Shown piece after piece: positions 7,328 through 30,524 of a stretch of DNA of 48,355 bases. The notes beneath the pieces are model-generated. The model saw only the letters and a program-made list of their open reading frames with translations. It did not search any database and was not told the origin of the DNA. How positions within the stretch are numbered: the first letter of the stretch is position 1; every line of letters starts with the position of its first letter. Source of the stretch: Chrysophaeum taylorii (Eukaryota; Sar; Pelagophyceae; Pelagomonadales; Pelagomonadaceae); NCBI GenBank assembly GCA_029834535.1, contig JAQMWT010000184.1:1-48355 (forward strand). Direction: 5' to 3'. The position numbers were made by a program, and so were the translations under genes.

Positions 7328-7501
7328 TTGTGTATTTGGCCCCCTTATTGTGCTGCTGCTGCTGCTGTCTTGGAGCGAGAGCGTCTGTTGTGGTGATTTC
7401 CCTCTATGAATTATCTCCCGACCGTTCAATATAATTATTATCCCCCCCACACACACACGGGTGTCGTGGTAGAGATATCCGCGTATAGTATATGTGTATC
7501 A

Positions 7502-8743
7502 ATGCCCCAGAAGAAGAAATGGGTATCGCCGGTACTGCTGGAGATTATCGACCTCGCCGCCGCGGGTCAGCTCGACGCGCTCGAATCCCTGGCGTCGTCG
7601 GAGATGGTTGCGGCGCGGGACAAGTACGGGTCGACGGCGCTGCATTGGGCGTGCGGTCGCGGCCACACAGAGGTCGCACGGTTTCTTGTTGCGCAGGGCC
7701 TGGAGGTCGACGCGCGACAGGTGAACGGGCGCACCCCCCTGCACTTCGCCGCGCGCAACGGATACGTCGAGGCCTGCCAAGTCCTCGTCGCCCTGGGCGC
7801 AGACCCCGACGCCAAGGCCGAGGGGGACGTGACGCCGTTCCAGCTGGCCGCGTGGCAGCTGCGATGGGAAGTCGTGCGATACCTCGGCGCGGTCGTGCCG
7901 ATCGGCGCGCCCAACGCCTTCGCGTGCGTCGCGAGCCACTGGGTCGCTCTCGCGCCCCGCGACCGCGCGCGCGACGGCCGCCAGCTCCGCGTCGCCGAGT
8001 ACCTCCGCGAACGATGCGGCGACGAGTTTTGGCGCGCCCGGAACGCCCAGGGCCACACGCCGTTGCACAAGGCTGCGTTCTCGGGGCACGCCGGCCTCTG
8101 CGACTGGCTCCGGACGGTCGTTGGCGCGGTCGACGACGCCCCCGACGACCACGGGAATTACGCGTCGGATCTCGCGACGGAGTCGGGACACGTCGACCTC
8201 GCGAACGCCCTCCGGGCCATCGCCGCGCCGACGCGGCAAGCCGACCTCGAATTTCTCGGCCTCGATGCCGACGCGACCAAAGCCGACGTGCGGGCGGCAT
8301 TTCGCCGCGTCGCCCTCGAGACCCACCCCGACAAAAGGGGCGACGCGCGCGCCTTCGAACGCGCGCGCGAGGCCTACGGACGCTTAACAGGCGCCGAGGT
8401 CGGCGCCGCCAACCCCCTCCGCGACGCCGACCGCCTCAAACTTCTCCTTCTCGAAGACCCGGCGCGGCCAATCGACGACGACGACGATGACGACGACTTC
8501 GAGACGCGCCTCGCCGCCATCCTCCTCGAGCAACCCAACGGCCCCGCGAGGTCGGCGTCCTCTTTCCCAAGCCCGTCTTCTGCCACGTCCAGCTCTACGT
8601 GGCTCTCTGTCGATCGGCAACCCCGAGGATATACTCATCTGGGTCGACGACTCCACCCTACCCCACACGTGCTGCGCAATTCCGATAAGCCCCCTCCCGG
8701 CGTCTACACGCGCACTATAAGTGAACTTACTGGGACCACGTGA
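7502..8743 (+). CDS. Ankyrin-repeat/J-domain protein with Helitron-derived C-terminus
   Basis: An uninterrupted 413-codon frame from the ATG at 7502 (MPQKKKW). Residues about 35-235 hold ankyrin repeats (GSTALHWACGRGHTEVARFL, GRTPLHFAARNGYVEACQVL, GHTPLHKAAFSGHAGLCDWL). Residues about 248-300 form a DnaJ domain with the HPD triad (RVALETHPDKRGDARAF), so it likely stimulates an Hsp70, with ankyrin repeats binding a client. A poly-Asp stretch follows. From residue about 347 (base 8541) the protein is encoded by the 3' end of a Helitron read in a frame other than the helicase frame; the same peptide pattern can be read from the Helitron copy at 9.4-9.6 kb. The natural stop before the insertion was therefore lost or replaced. 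Confidence 0.82.
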   Translation: MPQKKKWVSPVLLEIIDLAAAGQLDALESLASSEMVAARDKYGSTALHWACGRGHTEVARFLVAQGLEVDARQVNGRTPLHFAARNGYVEACQVLVALGADPDAKAEGDVTPFQLAAWQLRWEVVRYLGAVVPIGAPNAFACVASHWVALAPRDRARDGRQLRVAEYLRERCGDEFWRARNAQGHTPLHKAAFSGHAGLCDWLRTVVGAVDDAPDDHGNYASDLATESGHVDLANALRAIAAPTRQADLEFLGLDADATKADVRAAFRRVALETHPDKRGDARAFERAREAYGRLTGAEVGAANPLRDADRLKLLLLEDPARPIDDDDDDDDFETRLAAILLEQPNGPARSASSFPSPSSATSSSTWLSVDRQPRGYTHLGRRLHPTPHVLRNSDKPPPGVYTRTISELTGTT

Positions 8744-16840: not shown

Positions 16841-17929
16841 ATGCGAAGGAGCTGCGAGCAGGCGATGAACCGCGTGAGCAAACAGCAGACATCAAGCAGC
16901 GGGGAAGAGGTAGAATCGCTGAGCCTGAAAGATGAGGTGTCGCTTGCACCGCCCCCATTGCCCGCCGAGTCGTTTCAGGCCAAGGGGTTGAAGCTCGCTG
17001 CGTGCTTCTTCGGGCTCCAGGGGAGCTACGTGACGTGGGGGTTTATCCAGGAGAAGGTGATGACGCACCGATACGAGAGCGGAACGTTCTTTCCGTCGAC
17101 GGTGTTTCTCGTGTGCGCGAACCGGGCGCTCGCGCTCGTCGTCGCCGGGGTGCTCATGGCCTACAAATCAAACATTCTCCGGCAGCCCGCGGCCCGCGCC
17201 CCGTTTTACCAGTTTTCACCCTGCTCGATCAGCAACATCATATCCTCGTGGGCCCAGTACGAGTGCCTCAAGTACGTATCCTTCCCGACGCAAACGCTGT
17301 TTAAGTCGTCGAAAATTATTCCAGTTATGCTCGTCGGCAAAATCTTCCACAAAAAGTCGTATCCCTGGGTCGAGTACGTCGAAGCCCTCGGAATTACCCT
17401 CGGCGTCGCGGTCTTCATGCTGACGGAACACAATAAAAGCCGACATTCGGGCGCTCAGCGCGACGATTCTATTCTTGGCGTCATGATTCTCTCGCTCTAC
17501 GTCTTCTGCGACTCGTTCACCTCGCAGTGGCAAGATCGCGTCTACAAGACCTTCCACGTCGACCAGTACGCCATGATGTTTGGCGTCAACTTCTGGAGTT
17601 TATTGTTCTGCACCGCCAGCTTGGTTTCCACCGGCGACATGGCCGCCTCGCTCCGCTTCCTCAAGCTTAACCCCACGGCTCTCCTCAACGTCCTCACCTT
17701 GTCCTTCACCTCCGCCACCGGCCAGCTCTTCATCTTTTATACCATCAAAAAGTTCGGTCCCATCGTCTTCACCATCATGATGACCACCCGCCAGATGATC
17801 TCCCTTACCGTATCCTGCATCGTCTTCGGACACCCCCTCCCGCCCGCGGCCATCCTCGGCACTTTGATCGTCTTCACCGTCCTCTTTTACCGCACCAAGC
17901 GCAAGTACGACGCCGTCGCCCGAAACTAG
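16841..17929 (+). CDS. Golgi PAPS transporter-like (SLC35B2/B3 type)
   Basis: Nucleotide-sugar-transporter-fold protein that most likely carries the sulfate donor PAPS into the Golgi lumen. Family marks: LQGSYVTWGFIQEKVMT, TLFKSSKIIPVMLVGKIF, FCDSFTSQWQDRVYK, YAMMFGVNFWSLLF, GQLFIFYTIKKFGPIVFTIM, RQMISLTVSCIVFGHPLP and a Lys/Arg-rich C-terminus (RTKRKYDAVARN). About ten membrane helices, as in the family. Two starts are possible, 16841 and 16865; the N-terminal 45 residues are hydrophilic. The frame is intact. Immediately downstream on the same strand are two Tyr-rich secreted proteins. Other UDP-sugar carriers of the same superfamily are a weaker alternative. Confidence 0.85.
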   Translation: MRRSCEQAMNRVSKQQTSSSGEEVESLSLKDEVSLAPPPLPAESFQAKGLKLAACFFGLQGSYVTWGFIQEKVMTHRYESGTFFPSTVFLVCANRALALVVAGVLMAYKSNILRQPAARAPFYQFSPCSISNIISSWAQYECLKYVSFPTQTLFKSSKIIPVMLVGKIFHKKSYPWVEYVEALGITLGVAVFMLTEHNKSRHSGAQRDDSILGVMILSLYVFCDSFTSQWQDRVYKTFHVDQYAMMFGVNFWSLLFCTASLVSTGDMAASLRFLKLNPTALLNVLTLSFTSATGQLFIFYTIKKFGPIVFTIMMTTRQMISLTVSCIVFGHPLPPAAILGTLIVFTVLFYRTKRKYDAVARN

Positions 17930-18476: not shown

Positions 18477-19766
18477 ATGAGGACGCTCGCGTTGGTCCTC
18501 GCCGCCGGCGCGAGCGCCCATTTAGAAGGTAATCACGAGGACACCTACCTCTCGTCCGCGTCGTACTCGTTCGGCGAGTCCTACTCCATGTCCTACGATG
18601 AATCGTTCTTTTCCATGTCCTACTCGTTTGACGAGGAGCCGATGATGAAGCCGATCAAGCCAATCAAGCCGATCAAGCCGATCAAGCCGATCAAGAAGAG
18701 GTTCAAGGACGACTTTGATAACTTGGGCGAGTCCTACTCTTATTCCATGGACTTCTTTTCCATGTCCTACGATGACTCGTTTGTTTCATTTTCATACGAG
18801 GAGGATGCCGTCGCGATGCCGCCGATGAAAAAGAAGAAGAAGTTCAAGGATTTCTTCGACAAGAAGCCAAAGAAGCCGCCGATGAAGAAGAAGAAGAAGA
18901 AGAACAAGAAGAAGAACAAGAAGAAGAAGAAGAAGAGAGATGACTTAAACTTGGACGAGTCCTACTCTTATTCCATGTCCTACGACGAGCCGGAGATGAT
19001 TAAGGATATGTTCTTCGAGTCGTATTCGATGGATGCGTTCGGCTCGTACTCCTTTGCGGATGCTTACGATGCCATGCTTTCGGAGGAGCCCACGCTTATT
19101 CCGACGTTTGCGCCGACTGGCGAGCCGACCAACGAGCCGAGTTCGATGCCGACTCTCGATCCGACCGAGGCCTCGACCTTTATCGAAGTCAACGCCGCCG
19201 TTTTCATCTTCTTGCGAGGCTACTTCGCCGGATCCGTGCAACCTGCCGTCGACTTCTGCGATCTGTATGACTCGCTCAACCTAGAAACCACGTACAGCGA
19301 CGCGCTGCGCGATGGCCTCAACGGCACCACTTCCGCGTTTACCGTCGCGTGCGTCGTCTTTTCTCCGAGATTCGCGACGCTCGTCTTCACCGGCCCGATC
19401 TCGACCTTATTCTACAATGCCATCGCCAACCCCGTGGCCGCGCGCCAAAGCACGCAAGCCCAGCTGCGCACACATTTCTTCGGCGGCGGCTTTAACAACG
19501 CCGTCCGCAGATTCAGCTCGAACAGCCGTCGCCGGCTCCTCGACGACGGCGACGTCGAAGACCTCCTCCAAAACTACACTTCCGTCAACACGACCATCTT
19601 GCCCGACCCTACCGCGATGCCCACCGCCATGCCTGTCGCGCTCCCCTGTACTTCCAACTATGACTGCGACTACGGCGAAATCTGCGTTTTCTCCGCGGGC
19701 CGTCGCTCCCTCCGCTTTGGCGACTACGGCCTCTCCGGCTTCTGCGAAGCGGCCTCCACCACCTAG
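18477..19766 (+). CDS. Secreted Tyr/Ser- and Lys-rich repeat protein (paralogue 1)
   Basis: 429 residues. MRTLALVLAAGASA is a signal peptide. Residues about 20-205 are low complexity: SYSMSYDES- and SFSYEE-type Tyr/Ser/acidic blocks, a run of IKP units (about 57-75), and a long basic block (about 120-160) of Lys with Phe, Asp and Asn. A short PT-rich linker (PTFAPTGEPTNEPSSMPT) leads to a C-terminal domain of about 190 residues (VFIFLRGYFAGSVQPAVDFC, FTVACVVFSPRFATLVFTGP, DVEDLLQNYTSVNTTI) closing with a Cys-rich tail CTSNYDCDYGEICVF. Sequons NGT, NYT, NTT are present. The C-terminal domain is shared with the next gene; the N-terminal halves are unrelated. It probably belongs to an extracellular coat, wall or adhesive; the polybasic block recalls mineral- or polyanion-binding proteins. 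Confidence 0.8.
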   Translation: MRTLALVLAAGASAHLEGNHEDTYLSSASYSFGESYSMSYDESFFSMSYSFDEEPMMKPIKPIKPIKPIKPIKKRFKDDFDNLGESYSYSMDFFSMSYDDSFVSFSYEEDAVAMPPMKKKKKFKDFFDKKPKKPPMKKKKKKNKKKNKKKKKKRDDLNLDESYSYSMSYDEPEMIKDMFFESYSMDAFGSYSFADAYDAMLSEEPTLIPTFAPTGEPTNEPSSMPTLDPTEASTFIEVNAAVFIFLRGYFAGSVQPAVDFCDLYDSLNLETTYSDALRDGLNGTTSAFTVACVVFSPRFATLVFTGPISTLFYNAIANPVAARQSTQAQLRTHFFGGGFNNAVRRFSSNSRRRLLDDGDVEDLLQNYTSVNTTILPDPTAMPTAMPVALPCTSNYDCDYGEICVFSAGRRSLRFGDYGLSGFCEAASTT

Positions 19767-20189
19767 GTGTAAACCACGACTGCCTCGGTTCCTTTCGTTT
19801 GCTCCTTATGGCTACCGCCAAAACCCACCTATCCTTCACTCGTGACTCGCATCGTCTTGCGCGACCGAGCTCCGCGACTTCTCAAATTGTCATCATCTTC
19901 TGTACGCGTGCGTGCGTGACCGATCTCGGACTTTTTTCTTCTAAAAGAAGACGAAGAAGGAAGACAGACCTTCGCGCGCCTATTCTCTAACTTTTTTTCT
20001 TATGTTTTTTTTACCAACTCCACAATTTTTTCAGCTGTGCCCCCAAAAAACAAACAAACAAACTAACTAACAAACCTGTTGTGCGTCATCGGAATTTTTT
20101 ACCACGAATCAGGCCGAGTCAGGTCTGTTTGACTTTGACGTAGTGAGGCAGATTCGCCCATAAAAGAAAATAGAAGAAACTACTAAAAA
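19767..20189. other. Intergenic between the secreted paralogues
   Basis: T-rich DNA with AAAC/AACT short repeats near 20047-20073. It must hold the 3' end of paralogue 1 and the promoter of paralogue 2. No gene. Confidence 0.6.
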
Positions 20190-22441
20190 ATGTCCTCGCC
20201 CTGGCTCTTCTTGGCCACGGCGGGGACGGCAGTCGCCAACTCGAGGCGTCTCATGGCCTCGTACTCGATGGGCTATTTCGTCGACACGTTGAGCGTGAGC
20301 TACGGTTCCTACGCCAACACATTTGACGCGAGCTACGGTACTTACGAAATCACTGACGTGAGTTCTGTCGACGTGCTTAGCGCGAGCTACGGTTCCTACG
20401 ACGACGTCACTGATGTGAATTCGATCGACAAGTTTGACGCGAGCTACGGTTCCTACGGTGTCACTGATGCGAGTCCCGTCGATATGTTTGACGCGAGCTA
20501 CGGTTCATATTATGTCGACGCGCTCGATGCGAGCTACGGTTCGTACGTCGATCAAGCGTTTGAATATACGAGCTACGGATCCTACGGTGTCACTGATGCG
20601 AGTCCCGTCGATATGTTTGACGCGAGCTACGGTTCTTACGTCGTCGAAGCGCTCGATGCGAGCTACGGTTCGTACGTCGATCAAGCGTTTGAATATACGA
20701 GCTACGGTTACTACGACACTGATGTGAGTCCCGTCGACACGTTTGACGTGAGCTACGGTTCATATTATGTCGACGCGCTCGATGCGAGCTACGGTTCCTA
20801 CGTCGATCAAGCGTTTGAATATACGAGCTACAGTTACTATGACACTGATGCGAGCTACGTTGACACGTTTGAATATACGAGCTACGGTTCGTACGACACT
20901 GATGTGAGCTACGTCGACTCGTTGTTTGACGCGAGCTACGGATCCTACGACGTGAGTTTCCCCGGCGTCCTCTTATTTTCCCGCGAACGCGACCGAACTA
21001 TCCGGCCTATATAATACGCGCGTGATGTTTCTGTCTTCTTTCGGTTGCCAGCGCGAGTTCCCTGGCTCAGGTCTTCACTGATGATATGAGCTTCTCCTAC
21101 GTCGTGAGCTTTGTTGCATCTTCGTTGCTAACTCGTTTACTACTTTAGGCGTTTGTGTCGTTCGACTTCGGCGACCTTTTTATTAAAATCAACGTGGAGC
21201 CAACAGCCTTGCCAACGACCGTACCAACGTCGGTACCGACGACCGCACCATCATCAGTGCCGTTACCGTCGCCGCTACCGTCGCCGTTACCGTCGCCGCT
21301 ACCGTCGCCGTTACCGTCGGCGTTACCGTCGCCCGCGTCAGTCCTGGAGACCGTCGAACCAACGACCGCACCATCACCGGCGCCAGCGCCCGTACCATCG
21401 GCAGCGTCGACGACCGTACCATCGCTGGCGCCAGCGCCGATACCGTCAACGTTGCCGACGACCGTACCATCGCGCGTGCCAGTGCCCGTACCGTCAACGT
21501 TGCCGACGACCGTACCATCGCTGGCGCCAGCGCCGATACCGTCAACGTTGCCGACGACCGCGCCATCGCTGGCGCCAGCGCCGATACCGTCAACGTTGCC
21601 GACGACCGTACCATCGCTGGCGCCAGAGCCGATACCATCAACGTTGCCGTCGGCCGCGCCATCGCTCGCGCCAGCATCGAGTCCATCGATCGAAAATTTG
21701 CAGCCAACGACGGTGCCACAGCCGGAACCAACGCTGACGGTCGCGCCGACGGCGACGCCGTTTCCAACCTTAGTGCCGTCGCCGTACCCAAGTTCAGCGC
21801 CGACGAGCATGAACAGCTACATCCAAGTCCGAGTGATAGTGTTTATTTTTGGAGGCGGGTTCTTCCGTTCGTCGATCAATCGCGCGTCGGACTATTGCAC
21901 TCTTTACGAGCGACTCTCTCCCGATTCCTCGTTTAGCAACGCGATACGCGACGGGTGCAACGCCACGGCTGGTGACTTTTCAGTCGATTGCTCTATCTTG
22001 TCGCCGAACTTCGCTATCCTCACCTTCACGGGTCCGGTCTCGACGGTTTACTACCGCTTCATCTTCAACCCTATTCTTGCTATTTTTCGCATAACGAGAC
22101 AGCTTCGGCCGTGGTTCGTCAACGGAAATTCCTTCAACAATCGCGTCCGTTTCCACCACTATAGGCGCCGCCGCGAGCTTCTGGATGAAGGGGACATCGA
22201 GGATCTCCTCCAGAACTACACCAGCGTTAACGCTACCCTTCTTCTTGATCCGACCTTTGCGCCGACGATCTTGCCGACCGACCTCCCGACCGAAGCACCC
22301 ACTCGAGCGCCGACTGCGCCCACTACATGCTCCACCGACTACGATTGCGACTACGGATTCGAATGTGTCTTTGCATCGGTCACCCGCCGAGCTCTCCGCT
22401 TCGGCACTTACTTGCTCACCGGCACCTGCCAGCCCGTCTGA
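20190..22441 (+). CDS. Secreted SYGSY- and PT-repeat protein (paralogue 2), three exons
   Basis: Exons inferred as 20190-20951, 21071-21103 and 21149-22441; donors GTGAGT and GTGAGC, acceptors CTCAG and TTTAG, all phase 0 and joining open frames. The second intron is 45 nt. MSSPWLFLATAGTAVA is a signal peptide. Exon 1 has 15 units of the type DASYGSY, arranged in a higher-order repeat of about 132 bp. Exon 3 starts with a long PTxxPS/PAPIPS repeat (21190-21800) and then the same C-terminal domain as paralogue 1: VFIFGGGFFRSSINRASDYC, FSVDCSILSPNFAILTFTGP, DIEDLLQNYTSVNATL, CSTDYDCDYGFECVF, GTC end. The minus-strand frames in the repeat are shadows. Function unknown; the Tyr/Gly/Ser repeat resembles phase-separating or silk-like sequences. 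Confidence 0.8.
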
Positions 22442-22984
22442 CCTTTGCTCTTCTCCTTCGAAAAAGTCACTGAGTAGTTTATCACTCACTCGTCCTCCTC
22501 CAGTCGTCTTCTGCGTCTGTGACTTTTTTTTCGAGCGACTTCTCTTGCATCGACTTCGCCGCCGCCGCAGACCTATTATTGTGGCGCTGTCGTGCTACGC
22601 CCCCCTCCTGGAATCACTAACACGTTATCAGTCCTTGTCCCACGAGCCACTTCGAGATGGGCGCATCTACAAAAATGTATAAACTCCGCCCACAAGCGGC
22701 GCAGGAGCCCCCACTCCCGGGTGGCTTTTTGTGCAGGCTCGTCTTCTCCTCCTCGGAGGTGCGCGGGAAGAGGCCTTTCTTTCTTTCTTTCTTTCTTTCT
22801 TTGTCTTATCTTCTGTAACCGCAGAAACGAGAATTCTGCTTTTCTCTGTTTGAATAATTCGTATACAAGTGTATTAAGATTTCATCCTTCTTCTTCTTCT
22901 TCTTCTTCTTCTTCTTCTGTAAAGGCGAGATCTTGTAGCCTACCTGGTCCCTCATCGCTAACCGCAACCGCACGTCGGACGGTG
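22442..22984. repeat. Intergenic with TTTC and TTC microsatellites
   Basis: Holds (TTTC)n at about 22774-22802 and (TTC)n at about 22887-22918. No gene recognised. Confidence 0.8.
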
Positions 22985-23626: not shown

Positions 23627-25932
23627 TTAGGACTTGGACTTGGTGGAGCTGAGAGTCGACTTGACGCTTTTGAACAGAGCATTACGAAACACAGGTACGA
23701 CAGACAGTGTGTTAAGGTTATCTGAGGTGGTGGATATCGTTACTGGTTCGAGAGTATCGGTATCGTCTTCGTCAGCTTCTGCTGTCAGGTGGTGAACACC
23801 AATAGCAGAATGGTGTGGTACCATACGAAACGTGAGTGCAAGTAAAGCATTCAGTATGGATGGCATTAGTGAGTCAAGTTGTTGTGTGTCCAGTCGGTTT
23901 TCCAAGAAGTTGGATTCAGCGAACGGATCCGAGAAGATAGAAGAGTCTTCCGATTCACATGCGAAGGGAATGCTTTGAATACGCGAGAGCAACTTATCAC
24001 GCAGATGATGGAGGTGATCGTCCGGGGAGGAATGGTTGGCGGCATATTGGTCATGAGCTGTAAGAGTTAAGCGAGACCGCAGCTCTGTGATCCTGTACAG
24101 TGTTATGAGCAACACGTGTGCATTGGCTGTAGGAGGAAAGAGCCGGTTCTCCAGGGAGGTAATTGAAGCAATAGCAGCCTGCAGATCTGTGCGCAGAGAT
24201 AGGTTCTCAGCGCTGAGGGTGTTGACCTTGCGAATATGTAGGCGAAGAGTTTCCTGGAGTTGCTCGACTTGTTGATGCAAGGCATCGACATCATCAGGCG
24301 AGGCAGATGGAGCAGGGTGTGTCGATGGCGAAGACATTTCCAGAGTAGGTTCTGATGTGGAAGGTGAGTAGTTTAACGACGTTTCGGTCAACACATGCTG
24401 TGCAAGTAGGGGGTATTTCGCGTTTAGAAAGTGCAGAAAGTCTTGATGTTCTGCCGGAGTATAGGTGGGGCCGAACATTACATCCAGGAGTGATGGCGGC
24501 TTTGTATCATCTGAGGATGATACGTAGTCGTCAAGATGTTGTGCCCACGATTGGGCAACAGTATTAATCACATGATGGTATTTGGAGGGCTTGAACATAG
24601 CCTGAGCTTTACGAGCCTGTGTTCGCACGAGAGTTACAAGAAAGTTAAGATGCTCCAGGTGCATCTGAGTAATAAGCCGAAGATCCAGGGCGAATGGCAG
24701 TTGAGTGGTGGAGTCTGTGGCTGCATCGGCTACCGATAAAACTAAATGAGCAAGTGACGGATGTTGCGTTAGACTGCTAGTCAAGAGAGTACGTAGCTCC
24801 TTTGACAAATGAGCCTTGCGAGGGCATCCGCCCTCCCGGCGTAGGTTGGCACCTATTCGCCTCCCGGGCGGGCCGGTTGGCAGCCGGAACGTTCGAGTGG
24901 GACGGTGTATGGCCGGGGGGCGAAGACGGAAGGTTATCGACGAGTTGGTTGTCAGTCACATCGCGGTCTCCTCGTCGCGTGGCGATTGATGGTCACTCTC
25001 CGCCGACCGGCCTTTCGGCGCTCCTCGTCTACAGGCCCGTGATTCCGGACTGGCTCCTGTCGGTCCGGCCTGGATCCCATGCTCGGGAAAGGTCTGAAGT
25101 TAGTTAGTTAGTTAGTTGACAAATGATAGGTGCGTATGATGGTTGCGCGTATATGACCAGCTGAGCACCCATCACAGGAGGATTGGAAGGAAGTAGCATT
25201 GCGGGCACATACGATAGGTTGTATAGGCACCTGATCGGTGTTGTGACAAGCGCAGCAAATGTTTATGGTGTTAGTTGAGATGGGGATGTGACCATTCTTC
25301 TTATGGTCGTCTGTGTTGAGGTGACTCAGCACTTCATTGGGGAGTTCACGAGGTGCTTGTGACTTCGAATTATATGTGGTGGGGGCAAGGAATGTAGGTT
25401 GTCCCAAATCGTTGAGGCATTGCGTACGGTAGGATGACAGAATGAAACGTTCACGTTTGGGGCCTCTGTAGCAGCCAATAGAAGCAATAGCAGGAGCATC
25501 TTCCCAAAATGTAGTAATGGGTAGGCGCAGGGATATGAATGTAGTTAGTTCCACAAACAGTGAAAAGTCAGCAGACTGATAGATCGAGTTGAGTGCCGTA
25601 GAGATTTCCGCTCGCATAAAAGAAGAGAGAAAGGGAGTGGCAGGGATACGGAAGTTCTCAGAGAGAGCGATTCCTCGTTCAAACAGGGAAAAATTCATTT
25701 TGAGGCCATCCTGGAGTGTTAGGGATTGTTGTAAAATATGTTCAGCTGGTGTCGGTGAGACGGCAGCAGCCTGGGAGGTAGCAGGAGTAACAGTGGTCAT
25801 GGGTTGTCGCTTTTGCGACAACTTGGGAGAAGGCTCGGCCGTGGAAAGCGAGCGTGGAATTGTCCTTCGAACGACCGGAGAGATGCCACGGCCACGGCCA
25901 CGGGAGTGCCAAGAAAAAGACATGAGCGACAC
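23627..25932 (-). pseudogene. Extra 3' ORF of the Copia element, split by a SINE
   Basis: Two open frames (25932-25108 and about 24812-23627) are in the same frame once the 299-bp SINE and one copy of its 11-bp target duplication are ignored, so this was a single ORF of about 665 codons. The N-terminal part begins MSLMSFSWHSRGRGRG and has a Cys-rich patch (CCACHN, CARN, CDGCSAGH) that may bind zinc. The C-terminal part has a coiled coil (DDVDALHQQVEQLQETLRLH) and Thr/Ser-rich stretches. No membrane segments, so it is not an obvious envelope. A displaced gag-like protein or a novel accessory protein are both possible. The recurring LTETSLNYS peptide lies in it. Confidence 0.6.
24813..25111 (+). 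mobile_element. SINE-like element with 11-bp target duplication
   Basis: A 299-bp insertion flanked by perfect TTGACAAATGA repeats (24802-24812, 25112-25122). It starts GCCTTGCGAGGGC, has a box-B-like GTTCGAGTGG at about 24888-24897, and ends GTCTGAAG followed by (TTAG)n. Variable-length target duplication plus a short-repeat tail and no ORF fit a SINE mobilised by a LINE. Relatives are at 22985, 30757 (minus) and 38533. Confidence 0.75.
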
Positions 25933-26029
25933 TCATACGACACGTACAAAAAAAATTGTGGCAAAAGAAGGTAGGGCCAGGGCTAGTTTGCTAATTTAAC
26001 GACGTTGCGGTCACTAGGGTTAGGCACAT

Positions 26030-27205
26030 TCAGTCCTGTAAAGGATTGTCGTCAGAGGCATGATGCATGCCGAGTAGAGAGCGAAAGGTGGAGAACTCAG
26101 CAGCAAGTGGCTTTGTAAAACCATCCGCCACGTTTAGCTTGCCTGGAACATGATGGACTCGTATTTTCTGAAGCGATATGTACTCACGAATTTTAAACCA
26201 TCTGGTCGACAGTGCCTTGGATCGAGAGGACCCATCTGGGTTATTAGAGGTGTGAACAGCGGCAGCATTGTCAGACAAGAGAGGTAGGCCTCTGATGAAG
26301 CGCATATCTTCAGCAATTGGGTTGTCATTGTCATCGAAGTCAACAGGGTCAGCGGTGTTCTCACCATTAGAATTGTTGACGTAGAAGGTGGGGTTGACGA
26401 CAAAGGAGAGTTCCAACAACAGCTTGCGTAGCCAAACAGCTTCATCAGCACAAATACTGAGGGCAATCAACTCAGCTTCGTGAGTTGAGCAGGAGACAAT
26501 CGGTTGAAGTTTGCTTTTCCAACCATTAAGGCAGTTGAAAAGATAGAAGACAAACCCGGTGGTAGATTTCCTATCTTCCTGTGCTAAGGAAGGGGCGTTG
26601 TCAGCGTCAACCATGGCAACTAAGGGGTCAAACTGTCCAGTAGATACATCCTGTGGTTGGTAATCGACCACAGTGGATAAATTAATTCGATTAGCGGAGA
26701 CAGTGCGAAGGTGAGCTTCAATGGCATTACCTTTAGGATGGAACCAGAGGCGAAGCGAGCGGTTTTCCGGCTTCTTGAGGTAGCGAAGCAAATGCTCTAG
26801 CATTTGGACGTGAACATACGTGGGTGCATGCATACCACGCGAACATCTGCCCAAGGCTTGCGAGAAGTCAGGTCTGCAGGCAACTTGCATGAACACCAGA
26901 TTGCCAAGGAGAGTGGCAAAGTGCGAATTGATGTACAACTCTGTTTCAGAGCTGGGAGTGCCATCTTTATACTTGAAGGACGAAGACATAGGATATTTAA
27001 GCAGGGTCAGTTGCTGCAAGACTGGATGATCAGCGAAGACTTCATCCAGCTTGGCTTGCACATCCAGAGAAATGGAACCGTCAGATGTGCGACACACACG
27101 CATGCCTAGGAGGGTATGGACAGGTTCAAACTGCTCTACAGCATACCGTTTGTGGAGGGCATCCTGTAACTGTACGAAGAGAGTCATCATTGGACACAAT
27201 AACAA
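26030..27205 (-). pseudogene. Copia RNase H region
   Basis: Continues the RT with EQFEPVHTLLGMRVCRTSDG, then the connection and RNase H domain: VAMVDADNAPSLAQEDRKST (first Asp), VSCSTHEAELIALS (Glu), LPLLSDNAAAVH (Asp), and the terminal HHVPGKLNVADGFTKPL (Asp). All catalytic acidic positions are seen. It stops with TGA followed at once by an in-frame ATG and a 12-codon frame that ends in the recurring TATSLN motif. RNase H degrades the RNA strand of the hybrid during cDNA synthesis. Confidence 0.8.
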
Positions 27206-28816
27206 TATCGTCTACAGACAGACTGCATACGACGAACTTAGCATGTGCGGATACTCGAGCATATAGGCAAGAGTCCGAATGCAGGCGTTTGTAGCCAAGG
27301 CTACGGAAGAAGCTGTCTATCTCTTTCTTCCAAAGAGATGGTGACTGTCGAAGTCCATAAAGTGACTTCAGCAGTTTCGGTAGACGTCGGCCCTTGTACT
27401 TAGCGTCATCGGGGTCGATAAGCTTGATGCCGTCTGGTAACTGAACATAGACGTTGGCATCAATGTCAGACTGAACGAAGGCGTTCGGGACGTCTGCATG
27501 ATAGACAGGCAATTGCTTGTATGCTGCAATAGCTAGTAGTACGCGGATTGCGGTCATGGTGGCCATGGGGCTGAAGGTGCCAAAGAAATCGGCGCCAAGA
27601 GATGCTAGGAAGCCACGTAGCACGAGGCGAGCCTTGTGCTTGACGTATTTGCCTGCAGAGTCTGTTTTAATCTTCAGCACCATCTTGCTGTCAATAGGAC
27701 GAGAGACAGCACCATCTTGCTGTCAATAGGACGAGAGACACCGTCGGGTAAGGAAAGTTTGAAGCAGCCGAAGCGGATAATGTCGTGGAGTTCATTGGCG
27801 ATGGCCTTAAGGTAGGCGTGCCTGTTTTCAGGCGACAAACCGTGGAGGCACTTGAGTTTATATTCGTCAATGGAAACGTCAGCTTCTTGTACCTTATATT
27901 CGTCAGGACCAACAATGGCTGGTGAATTATAGTTTAGTGACGTTGCGGTCGAGGCAGTGTGCGCAACTTCGGGATAAGCGGAAACAGCGCCAGTAGGAGT
28001 AGTAGAGGCAGATTCCAGTTGAATATGGATAGTAGGGTCGGTGTGTAGGACCTGGGTGATAAACTCTGTAGAGACCAGAAGGTATTCCTCCAAGTCAGCC
28101 AGAGATGCAGAAGTAGCGCCAAACTCGGAGGAGTTGTGATCAATAAAGCTGGTCGGCGCCAGGTACGTAAGTGCATATTGTGAGGAAGAAGTGCCAAAGG
28201 CAGCAGCGTGTTCAGTGAACGCAGATAAAAGGGGCTGAGGAATGGGGCACGTAGGTGAACCATCAGCAGTTAAAAAGGTTGCAGCTGGGATGCTGGATGC
28301 GCACTTGGCGTGGGCGAAGTAACCATCGACGTGCGGGTAGCGGGCAAGTAAGTCAGTGCGCAACGGGAGAAGAAGGCGAGCTAACAACGCATGTTCCCCC
28401 TCTGAGCAGATAGCAGACCAGAGGATACCACCACTGAGATGAAGGGCGGAGAGGGCGGGAGACTTGAACGTAAGAAAATGGTGGCGAAGATCCCAGCGGA
28501 AATCGGCGAGTTTGCCACCAGCGGCTTTGTAAGCACCAATGGGGGACGCTTGTAACCGGGCTTGGATAGTTTTCATAGAAGTGGCCTTGCGGGTGTTGGG
28601 CTGTCTCGAACCTGGGACAAGAATGAGGTCATCTTGTGCAAAAAGGTCTTTGTAAGAAGGAAGCAAGGGCGGCGGTGGCATAGAGCCAGAATCGTCGGCG
28701 AGAGTGTTAGAAGAAGGAGAAGAGGCAGGAGCAGGGGACGAAGAAGGAGCTGAAGGAGGTGGGGAGTGCCCCCTCTGAGGATGAGGATAGGAGTCCTGGT
28801 CCCCTCTGAATGACAT
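27126..28816 (-). pseudogene. Copia reverse transcriptase region, frame-broken
   Basis: Starts at MSFRGDQDSYPHP with a long Pro/Ser-rich linker region before RT. The RT begins near HDIIRFGCFKLSLPDGVSRP and continues ARLVLRGFLASLGADFFGTF, LPVYHADVPNAFVQSDID, LPKLLKSLYGLRQSPSLWKK and the catalytic LSVDDIVIV (VDD of the YVDD box, Tyr replaced by Ser). A perfect 32-bp tandem duplication at 27676-27739 shifts the frame inside the RT N-terminus, and a further shift near 27190 separates RT from RNase H. Confidence 0.8.
27676..27739. repeat. Perfect 32-bp tandem duplication inside RT
   Basis: Two identical 32-base units, 27676-27707 and 27708-27739, beginning AGCACCATCTTGCTG. Because 32 is not a multiple of three, it breaks the RT frame. 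The identity of the copies means it is recent or a local assembly artefact. Confidence 0.9.
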
Positions 28817-30524
28817 GGTCTTGGATAGCGGCGTGGGGTGTGAGCGAGAAAGGCGCGGGAGGAGCGTGATGCGGAGGAGCAAGTTCAGGATCAGGAGTAA
28901 GATGCTGAAGCATGTAGAGGAATTGCAGCTTGGACGAAACACGAATTTGTCCGTTTTCAGGGTTGAGGACGACGTCAGCGAGATGGTCGACGCGAGGGGA
29001 GACGAGCGGGTTTTGTGCGTTGGCGCCACAGAGATATAAATATTTGCGGCGGCACGGTTCCCACTTGTGGTGTTCATGGGACTCCAATAGAAGGTAACAT
29101 TCAGCGCCAAAAATCTTGAGCATATCATGTTGGGGAGTGTTGAGTTGGTTGTAGAGTAGCTGTTGCGGACTCAGGATAGCATGATGAATGCGCTCGAGCG
29201 TGGCGTTCGGGAGAAGGTTGTAGCTTTGAACGGTGAGTATCACCGCCCACGGAAACATGATGGCTGGTTCCACGATCTTGGCGCCACGATAGTTAGCATT
29301 AAGGAGAGAACGAAGGCGAGTTGAGGAGGCGGAGGCGATGAAACCGATGGCGGACTCAACTTCAAAGTTAAAGTGGTGCATGTACGGTGGGAAGGCGATG
29401 AGTTGAATGCCTCTATCGACGCGGTACGGGGAGGTGATGTGCTGGCTAAAGTAAGGCTTGAAGGCATCGGAGTAGAGGGTGCGCATGTGCACGTTGAGTT
29501 GTGTACGACAAGAGTCATACACAAAATCCAGAGCTTGAGTGAACTCCGTGGCGTTGGTGGTGCGTGTAAAGTACACCAAGAGAAATTTCGAAATGTGTTC
29601 CTTGAAGACGATGATATGTGTGAAGCCTCCCCATTCGGATGGGATGGTCACATAGCCGCCGTCGCACGCCCAGACTTCACCGGCTTTGTGAGTTTGCTCA
29701 AAAGAAGGCTTGGTCGCATTGAAATGCTTGTGCGGGTGGCGCTTGTTGTGTGCGATGCAGTCGGTGCATAAGTCGCGATATGGTATGTCAGAAGCAGAGA
29801 ATCCAGGGCGAGCAAGTACGTTGGGGGCCTTGGCCGCGACGTTGTCGGGGCAGTGATGCACCCGGTGAAAGCGATTAGCACGTTCTTTGGCATTGAGATA
29901 TTCGGTGGATCCGTGTGCGAGGGACTTACGAGGAATTGGATGAGCGGGAATGTGCCGTTTGCGCCGAACATCGAACTTGAGTTCGATGTCTAAGGCAGTG
30001 GAAGGCGGTGCGTTGTCATCCTGGTGCGCAGCAGGGTCACTTGGAGGTGCATCCTCATCATCACGAGTAACGAGAGTGTCTTCGTAGGACGAAGATATAT
30101 TGTTTAACGACATTTCGGTCAAGCAGTTGCTGGAAATAGACATCATAAAAGCTTGTGCCAAAGACAAGGTATCTGTACTGCACGTGGTGGAAGCTTGATC
30201 TACGGTCATGAAATTGGATACATAGGATTTCGTAGTCACGGCAGCAGTATGTTGGAAGGTAGGGTCCAACATAAGGGATTTAATATCGGCAACGAGGAGC
30301 GAGAGGTGCTTGTACAGAGTACTGTACGTACCGGCAGGCAGAGCATTACTGAGCATGTCACAGCAAAGGTCATGGCGTAGAGACAAGAGGAAGGATTCCT
30401 GTTGTTTGGTGTGGTTGTTAGCACGAATCAACTCCGGTCGAGTGGGGTAGCGTAATTTCCCGTTGCGGGGGTCGAGTAAAATGATATTGGCGTACCCTCG
30501 GACGGTGGGCAATGGAGCATGCAT
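28707..30524 (-). CDS. Copia integrase ORF
   Basis: 605 codons. Residues 1-230 are of unknown type. The HHCC zinc-binding region follows (HRVHHCPDNVAAK and CTDCIAHNKRHPH), then the rve catalytic core: first Asp in GEVWACDGGYV, second Asp in MRTLYSDAFKPYF, and Glu in HHFNFEVESAIGF. C-terminal part has the Copia-type GAECYLLLESHEHHKWEPC and KYLYLCGAN. A protein integrating the cDNA into host DNA. The last 110 nt overlap the next ORF in another frame, so translation of pol may use a frameshift or re-initiation at 28816. Confidence 0.8.
   Translation of the reverse strand: MHAPLPTVRGYANIILLDPRNGKLRYPTRPELIRANNHTKQQESFLLSLRHDLCCDMLSNALPAGTYSTLYKHLSLLVADIKSLMLDPTFQHTAAVTTKSYVSNFMTVDQASTTCSTDTLSLAQAFMMSISSNCLTEMSLNNISSSYEDTLVTRDDEDAPPSDPAAHQDDNAPPSTALDIELKFDVRRKRHIPAHPIPRKSLAHGSTEYLNAKERANRFHRVHHCPDNVAAKAPNVLARPGFSASDIPYRDLCTDCIAHNKRHPHKHFNATKPSFEQTHKAGEVWACDGGYVTIPSEWGGFTHIIVFKEHISKFLLVYFTRTTNATEFTQALDFVYDSCRTQLNVHMRTLYSDAFKPYFSQHITSPYRVDRGIQLIAFPPYMHHFNFEVESAIGFIASASSTRLRSLLNANYRGAKIVEPAIMFPWAVILTVQSYNLLPNATLERIHHAILSPQQLLYNQLNTPQHDMLKIFGAECYLLLESHEHHKWEPCRRKYLYLCGANAQNPLVSPRVDHLADVVLNPENGQIRVSSKLQFLYMLQHLTPDPELAPPHHAPPAPFSLTPHAAIQDHVIQRGPGLLSSSSEGALPTSFSSFFVPCSCLFSFF

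What the first reader, a model, noticed from the sequence alone, without database searches (positions are those of the whole stretch)
18477..22441. Tandem secreted paralogues sharing a new C-terminal domain but with unrelated repeat halves
Both proteins have a signal peptide, a low-complexity N-terminal half, a PT-rich linker and the same C-terminal domain of about 190 residues with matching marks (VFIF, FTGP(I/V)ST, (V/I)EDLLQNYTSVN, YDCDYG..CVF) and matching cysteines. The N-terminal halves differ completely: one has SYSMSYDE blocks, IKP units and a long Lys block, the other 15 DASYGSY units and a long PTxxPS repeat. This looks like a family in which a fixed domain presents interchangeable materials-like repeats. 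I know no named domain with this pattern.
Basis: partly seen in the sequence, partly recalled or inferred. Interest (0 to 1): 0.78.

Follow-up and report, generated by a model that had tools for sequence, protein, structure and literature searches.

The report
Algal secreted proteins sharing C-terminal caps
Two neighbouring genes of an unnamed alga, probably a photosynthetic stramenopile, make secreted proteins with different repetitive front halves on the same new rear half, and at least eight more genes of that genome end in the same kind of small cysteine cap, which may be a shared tag for building the cell's outer covering.

Summary
Two tandem genes (18477-19766; 20190-22441, spliced) encode secreted proteins whose C-halves (~200 aa) are 52% identical (score 487, shuffle maximum 75). 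No searched Pfam, NCBIfam or PDB family covers the C-half. A third copy in the same genome has a different N-half, supporting a fixed rear module with exchangeable fronts.

Two corrections. (1) The "C-terminal domain" is two modules: a ~145-aa domain found in 3 genes, and a 34-46-aa four-cysteine cap found in at least 10 genes, behind FG-GAP, 2OG-oxygenase-like, VWA-like (by eye) or Ser-Tyr-rich fronts. (2) The N-halves share a style: Ser before most Tyr, among acidic residues.

New: R-x-L is kept in 10 of 10 caps (RR-x-L in 8) and in 10 of 10 C-halves. R-x-L is a precursor-processing motif of diatom silica proteins, some with PT repeats (papers, passages). No silicon-transporter match was found (weak control). 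I read these as cell-covering proteins, probably processed at R-x-L, the cap being an assembly tag; cleavage, location and tag role are inferred. The protein-collection searches found no homologue elsewhere.

The parts
18477..19766 (+). Gene 1, single open frame, 429 aa, secreted
18477..18518 (+). Gene 1 signal peptide (MRTLALVLAAGASA), cleavage site judged by eye
   Evidence: sequence
18519..19073 (+). Gene 1 N-half: Ser-Tyr-acidic blocks alternating with KPIKPIK (KxxK) and a long Lys block
19074..19175 (+). Gene 1 PT-rich linker
   Evidence: Pfam PT 24.9 bits, under the 26.2 cut-off
19176..19607 (+). Gene 1 ~145-aa domain (3 copies found in this genome)
19530..19541 (+). RRLL, the R-x-L site inside gene 1's domain
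19647..19763 (+). Gene 1 C-terminal four-cysteine cap with RSLRFG
20190..20951 (+). Gene 2 exon 1: signal peptide, RRL, Ser-Tyr repeats
20244..20252 (+). RRL just after the likely signal-peptide end of gene 2
20952..21070 (+). Gene 2 predicted intron 1 (GT-AG); alternatives exist
21071..21103 (+). Gene 2 predicted small exon 2
21104..21148 (+). Gene 2 predicted intron 2 (GT-AG); alternatives exist
21149..22441 (+). Gene 2 exon 3: PT-rich linker, domain, linker, cap, stop
21815..22249 (+). Gene 2 ~145-aa domain
22172..22180 (+). REL, the R-x-L site inside gene 2's domain
22328..22438 (+). Gene 2 C-terminal four-cysteine cap with RALRFG

Best explanation
The two genes belong to a family (at least 10 genes here, none found elsewhere) of secreted cell-covering or matrix proteins. 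Plan: signal peptide, often an R-x-L site, an exchangeable front part, a Pro/Thr spacer (likely hydroxylated and glycosylated), a C-terminal half with an R-x-L site, and a final four-cysteine cap carrying R-x-L-x-F-G. The cap, and in three genes also the ~145-aa domain, is the common assembly or anchoring module; the front part is the payload (cross-linkable Ser-Tyr/Lys polymer, adhesion domain or enzyme). A secretory-pathway protease probably cuts at R-x-L as proposed for diatom silica-wall precursors, leaving the cap pieces held by disulfides. Shown: architecture, paralogy, constraint on the three C-halves, cap position, R-x-L conservation. Inferred: cleavage, disulfides, location in the cell covering, role of the cap.
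For: C-halves align far above chance and are constrained. Third copy with a different N-half. Similar caps end proteins with FG-GAP (57.8 bits) and 2OG-Fe(II)-oxygenase-like (26.8 bits, just under the 27.0 cut-off) domains and with fronts Pfam does not name. The cap front occurs once per protein in 10 of 10. R-x-L-x-F-G in 10 of 10 caps, RR-x-L-x-F-G in 8; R lies 15-20 residues from the C-terminus, itself counted, in the 9 with a resolved end. At least one R-x-L in the C-half before the cap in 10 of 10. R-x-L to the next N-x-S/T is 13-14 residues in 6 of 10, over three domain types. In diatoms R-x-L is the proposed precursor-processing motif and PT repeats occur in silaffin-like wall proteins (passages of PMC5525289, PMC4557024, PMC5647440, PMC5501833).
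Against: No expression, localisation or cleavage data. The pooled motif count does not single out R-x-L: it is 45 against 15.3 expected, but R-x-x-L is 45 against 15.8, RR-x-L being far in excess (22 against 0.6), which would also suit dibasic, furin-like cutting. Gene 1 has no R-x-L after the signal peptide, and only 5 of the 8 proteins with a readable N-terminus do, in C314b as far in as residue 60. In C642 and C113 the R-x-L nearest the cap is RWL, and in C536 one lies in the PT linker. The middle-domain types A-E show no reliable homology (hhalign probability at most 14%). No relative found outside this genome. Structure prediction failed (mean pLDDT 43 and 45). Hydropathy does not wholly exclude a membrane stretch: 2 of 10 proteins slightly exceed the usual 1.6 (gene 1 1.62 at residue 287, inside the domain; C113 1.65 at 228, in the PT linker).
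Confidence: 0.47

Rival explanations
1. Ordinary secreted mucin-like adhesins: the PT linker is a stalk, the cap a generic disulfide mini-domain (EB/Dickkopf-like), and the basic sites are furin-type processing or composition.
For: Weak Dickkopf_N, Lustrin and DUF7107 matches on the cap front, all below cut-off; best PDB match of the cap profile is a carboxypeptidase inhibitor fragment at E 0.013. R-x-x-L is as much in excess as R-x-L, and RR-x-L is far in excess.
Against: The two caps without RR (C314b, C46) still keep R-x-L-x-F-G, which a dibasic site does not need; the cap front occurs once per protein and ends the chain in the 9 resolved cases, whereas EB-like modules often repeat within proteins (recalled).
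Confidence: 0.31
2. Silaffin/cingulin-like silica-forming proteins: Lys-rich KxxK and Tyr-rich blocks template silica, as in diatom girdle bands.
For: Gene 1 alternates Tyr-rich blocks with KxxK (21 overlapping KxxK, the Lys runs included). R-x-L and PT repeats are shared with diatom silica proteins, and Y-type cingulins also lack the N-terminal RXL (PMC5647440).
Against: No silicon-transporter (PF03842) match in the genome; weak evidence, since the first look gave 0 candidates and the 14 control genomes rang only in one bacterium, under cut-off. Of ten proteins only gene 1 has several Lys runs of four or more (C46 has one). The diatom screen asked for KxxK with x = S or G (PMC5501833), which gene 1's KPIK/KKKK are not.
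Confidence: 0.12
3. Secreted effectors or host-directed proteins, by analogy with RxLR or PEXEL export motifs (recalled), rather than structural proteins.
For: R-x-L near the N-terminus in 5 of 8, and acidic residues soon after R-x-L in several C-halves.
Against: The nearest named kin of the neighbouring transporter gene are algae; long PT tracts, FG-GAP and Ser-Tyr repeats fit cell coverings better; the motif recurs at the C-terminus.
Confidence: 0.04

Closest known systems
Diatom R-x-L precursor proteins of the silica wall (silaffins, cingulins, silacidins, frustulins, Sin1, SAPs)
   Same: Secreted, R-x-L at the pro-peptide and further along the chain, PT repeats in some, Tyr/Trp and KxxK repeats in cingulins (passages read)
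   Different: No sequence homology shown and none could be aligned here; new domain and a cap with R-x-L-x-F-G; FG-GAP and oxygenase-like fronts; no silicon-transporter match in the genome
Pfam PT disordered repeat (PF04886)
   Same: Of ten family members scanned, 2 pass the cut-off (C642 34.0, C314b 27.0) and 4 score under it (gene 1 24.9, C314a 21.7, C46 20.4, C113 17.3)
   Different: Describes only the linker; gene 2, C78, C316 and C536 gave no PT match at the limits used
Dickkopf_N / DUF7107 / EB-like cysteine modules
   Same: CxxxxDCxxGxxC front of the cap (all under cut-off)
   Different: R-x-L-x-F-G insert before the fourth Cys; once per protein and at its end in the 9 resolved cases
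Frustulin acidic cysteine-rich domain
   Same: Small acidic Cys module joined to Pro-rich linkers in some wall proteins (passages of PMC4712521)
   Different: The hexapeptides CQGDCD and VPGCSG named there are not in these caps; no sequence was at hand to align
SEA/ferredoxin-like extracellular domains (resemblance recalled)
   Same: Low-confidence models give strand-helix-helix-strand-strand-helix over the first ~85 residues

Membership tests
Cingulins/silaffins | Signal peptide followed by R-x-L pro-peptide site | tested here: inconclusive
   Gene 2 yes (NSRRLM), gene 1 no; 5 of 8 members with a readable N-terminus. Y-type cingulins lack it too (PMC5647440)
Cingulins/silaffins | Alternating KxxK and Tyr/Trp-rich blocks | tested here: inconclusive
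   Gene 1 has both, but x is not S or G; gene 2 has no Lys run of four or more
Cingulins/silaffins | Organism forms silica (silicon transporter present) | tested here: inconclusive
   PF03842: 0 matches; control set rang only in Bacteroides ihuae, under cut-off, so detection of a true transporter was not shown
Cingulins/silaffins | Embedded in biosilica / precipitates silica | not testable with these tools
   needs experiment
Pfam PT repeat | Score above gathering cut-off | tested here: inconclusive
   2 of 10 family members pass; gene 1 24.9 against 26.2, gene 2's exon-3 frame no match
Dickkopf_N / DUF7107 Cys module | Score above cut-off | tested here: not met
   12.2-15.9 bits against 24.6-25
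DUF6075 | Score above cut-off | tested here: met
   Gene 2's N-half frame (20190-21011): 30.7 bits against 23.8
DUF6075 | Match to a whole domain rather than to a repeat | tested here: not met
   Best of two stretches covers model positions 75-123 of 129 and lies on the Ser-Tyr repeat, not on the C-half; read as a composition match
SEA domain | Fold and sequence profile | tested here: inconclusive
   No SEA match in Pfam at E<=1 for the window genes; models at mean pLDDT 43 and 45 only
R-x-L precursor proteins (as a kind) | Conserved R-x-L at module junctions | tested here: met
   10 of 10 caps and at least one in 10 of 10 C-halves; pooled excess 45 against 15.3, but R-x-x-L is equally in excess
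R-x-L precursor proteins (as a kind) | Actual cleavage at R-x-L | not testable with these tools
   needs mature-protein mass spectrometry

The most novel reading that the evidence does not exclude
The four-cysteine R-x-L-x-F-G cap is a C-terminal sorting and assembly tag of the algal cell covering: any front placed before it, structural repeat, adhesin or enzyme, is delivered, cut at R-x-L and locked into the covering. R-x-L processing would then not be special to silica but a general machinery for building cell coverings in photosynthetic stramenopiles, later recruited by diatoms.
Probability: 0.2. Interest if true: 0.75.

Novelty: new variant of a known kind. Interest (0 to 1): 0.55.

Why it matters
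It gives a concrete, testable module (a 34-46-residue C-terminal cap) shared by proteins whose fronts differ widely, and suggests that the unknown R-x-L protease of diatom wall formation may act outside silica. It would also offer a natural chassis that presents different protein materials on one anchoring end.

Tried and rejected
Relatives were sought in viral contigs (two queries, 2 scans), in prokaryote species genomes and, with gene 2's C-half, in phage records: none. Gene 1 (residues 234-429) and the C113 protein (residues 270-502) were sought in 5.8 billion proteins: none at E<=0.01 among 638 and 1714 candidates. That method needs shared 5-residue words and lengths within 0.55-1.75 of the query, so distant relatives may be missed.

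Structure prediction from two window sequences stayed at mean pLDDT 43 and 45, so the SEA-like order of elements is only a hint; the fold search was off. hhalign over the ten pairs of five middle-domain types gave best single P 0.0019 (B-D), 0.009 (A-C), 0.013 (B-C), 0.014 (A-B), 0.021 (A-D) and higher for the rest, probability at most 14%; the A-B, A-D and B-D matches lie on the RRxL-to-sequon stretch. I do not claim homology of these domains.

Weak cap matches at C257, C275 and a second C316 site were read as chance or a decayed duplicate and dropped from the count. A silica role was considered and put low. Organism: the neighbouring transporter's nearest named kin are an MMETSP entry whose label is cut at 'Fibroc' (read as Fibrocapsa; 52%) and Tribonema (49%), with unnamed sequences at 68-80% above them, so probably a photosynthetic stramenopile; class not settled, and two attempts at an 18S search failed. 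On re-checking I changed three odds (best explanation 0.50 to 0.47, novel case 0.22 to 0.20, adhesin rival 0.28 to 0.31) because R-x-x-L proved equally in excess and two proteins slightly pass a hydropathy threshold.
Full report
WHAT IS THERE. Two genes lie head to tail on the + strand of a 70.8 Mb, 697-contig genome (window = G000:C184:1-48355). Gene 1 (18477-19766) is one frame of 429 aa. Gene 2 (20190-22441) must be spliced; introns 20952-21070 and 21104-21148 give 695 aa, one of 9 stop-free models among the splice sites tried. Each has a signal peptide by eye, a low-complexity N-half, a Pro/Thr-rich linker and a C-half. The C-halves align over their length, score 487 against a shuffle maximum of 75 in 1000, identity 52%. 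dN/dS by NG86 is 0.45/1.56 for the pair, 0.41/1.46 for gene 1 and the third copy, and 0.14/0.86 for gene 2 and the third copy, so the region is coding and constrained; the first two dS values are near saturation.

IS IT A KNOWN DOMAIN. Pfam gives no family above cut-off for the C-half (a DUF7107 match of 12.2 bits on gene 1's cap is under it), NCBIfam none, PHROGs only a 0.05 match, the PDB none for gene 2's C-half at E<=1. One Pfam family, DUF6075, passes its cut-off (30.7 against 23.8 bits), but on gene 2's Ser-Tyr repeat and over part of the model; I read it as a composition match. Against 5.8 billion proteins, 638 candidates shared words with gene 1 residues 234-429 and none scored E<=0.01. 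That is not for lack of eukaryotes: the same collection returned 1501 relatives of the neighbouring transporter at E<=1e-30, with a diatom, other photosynthetic stramenopiles, MMETSP and EukProt entries among the 120 listed.

TWO MODULES, NOT ONE. In the own genome the ~145-aa domain has 3 matches at E<=1: the window pair and G000:C78:96583-97032. The last 34-46 residues behave differently. Searches with several caps give 10 genes: C184 (two), C78, C314 (two, caps 4.8 kb apart on the same strand), C642, C113, C316, C46 and C536. The searches score only the best candidates, so this is a lower bound. All ten carry C-x4-[DE]-C-x2-[GRS]-x2-C once, then R-x-L-x-F-G; the fourth cap Cys and the stop are resolved in 9, and C536 seems to need a further exon.

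EXCHANGEABLE FRONTS. What precedes the cap varies: Ser-Tyr repeats (gene 1, gene 2, C314a), an unknown region (C78; no Pfam match at E<=0.1), FG-GAP repeats at 57.8 bits plus a tract of about 1830 residues rich in PTxxPS (C642), a 2OG-Fe(II)-oxygenase-like domain at 26.8 bits against a cut-off of 27.0 (C113), a VWA-like stretch by eye (C316; Pfam silent on it), a beta-helix-like stretch by eye (C46; Chlam_PMP E 0.16), and unknown ones (C314b, C536). Gene 2 and C78 are 77% identical in the C-half, while BLASTP of the fronts finds only the last 30 residues of PT linker below E 0.1 (70%, E 2e-7).

THE FRONTS OF THE PAIR ARE LESS DIFFERENT THAN THEY LOOK. Ser precedes Tyr in 13 of 15 cases in gene 1 (2.2 expected), 32 of 43 in gene 2 (7.5 expected) and 13 of 20 in C314a (4.9 expected; shuffle maximum 12); an acidic residue lies within five of 15 of 15, 41 of 43 and 16 of 20 tyrosines. 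The repeats make these counts non-independent. Acidic Ser-Tyr tracts could be cross-linked or sulfated (recalled chemistry). The gene just upstream (about 16841-17929) resembles PAPS transporters by names, which is suggestive only.

R-x-L. R-x-L-x-F-G is in 10 of 10 caps, with x = S, A, A, R, A, G, R, S, Y, Q; 8 of 10 are RR-x-L-x-F-G, and the two that are not (C314b, C46) keep R-x-L. The C-half before the cap holds at least one R-x-L in 10 of 10. In C78, C314a and C314b there are exactly three R-x-L in the whole protein: in the N-terminal part, in the C-half and in the cap. In 6 of 10 (gene 1, gene 2, C78, C314a, C314b, C316) the last R-x-L before the cap is followed by N-x-S/T after 13-14 residues, though these are only three domain types. 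Over the ten proteins R-x-L occurs 45 times against 15.3 expected in shuffles; L-x-R 13 (16.3), R-x-I 8 (7.6), R-x-F 9 (8.4), R-x-V 8 (15.9), R-x-S 18 (31.1). Against: R-x-x-L is just as much in excess (45, 15.8), with RR-x-L far in excess (22, 0.6), so the pooled count does not separate an R-x-L protease from a dibasic one; the sequences are related, so these are not probabilities; gene 1 lacks the N-terminal site and 5 of 8 readable N-termini have one; C642, C113 and C536 have other R-x-L nearer the cap; 15-48% of shuffled caps hold an R-x-L by composition.

WHAT THE LITERATURE SAYS. [quoted passage not shown] RXL motifs also end internal repeats in frustulins, cingulins or silacidins, and cingulins alternate KXXK with Trp/Tyr-rich regions (PMC4557024, passages). 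One paper states that RXL sites had so far been found only in biosilica-associated proteins, that their role in processing remained to be proven, and that Y-type cingulins lack the N-terminal one (PMC5647440, passages). PT repeats are reported in silaffin-like and KXXK proteins of Thalassiosira, with dihydroxyproline a possible modification (PMC5501833, passages). Five searches for such proteins outside diatoms listed nothing that by title or abstract describes this architecture (listings only); that is no proof of absence, since most subscription papers are not held.

MECHANISM. I take these to be secreted cell-covering proteins, with the front as payload, the PT tract as spacer, and the C-half plus cap as the assembly end, probably matured by an R-x-L protease. 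Steps shown: architecture, constraint on the three C-halves, conserved motif and position. Steps inferred: cleavage, disulfides, covering location, tag role. No clear membrane helix was seen: the highest 19-residue hydropathy beyond residue 25 is 1.02-1.65 in the ten proteins, two of them N-terminally incomplete; gene 1 (1.62, inside the domain) and C113 (1.65, in the PT linker) slightly pass the usual 1.6. The oxygenase-like protein with the same cap would fit an enzyme sent to the same place to hydroxylate prolines of the PT tracts; that is a guess. The silica version is less likely because no silicon transporter was found, with the caveat that this search had no suitable positive control.

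VERDICT. The finding is real and larger than reported: not two paralogues but at least ten capped genes in one genome. It is a new family of a recognisable kind (R-x-L and PT-repeat wall precursors of photosynthetic stramenopiles), so I call it a new variant of a known kind, interest 0.55.

Noticed in passing
window 23627-30524, - strand: Frames that read like a Ty1/copia-type retrotransposon (integrase-like and RNase H-like stretches), recognised by eye only.
   Followed up: no
window 16841-17929, +: SLC35B-like nucleotide-sulfate (PAPS) transporter directly upstream of the pair; nearest kin are unnamed proteins at 68-80% identity.
   Followed up: partly
G000:C314:506234-511240 (L011): A second tandem pair of cap proteins, caps 4.8 kb apart, with 33% identity in their middle domain.
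   Followed up: partly
L010 (G000:C536): Upstream of the cap the same ectodomain (VCLDDDVxFxFGDSTLKYNNLGNYGPYYH...) occurs twice in one frame.
   Followed up: no
window 7406-8743, +: Frame that by eye joins ankyrin-like repeats and a DnaJ-like J domain.
   Followed up: no
window 22775-22918: CTTT and CTT microsatellites just after gene 2; the CTT tract is the reverse complement of gene 1's Lys-coding GAA block.
   Followed up: no
L014 3320-3658: What looks like a degraded duplicate of the C316 cap region, with a four-base repeat, just downstream of the intact gene.
   Followed up: partly
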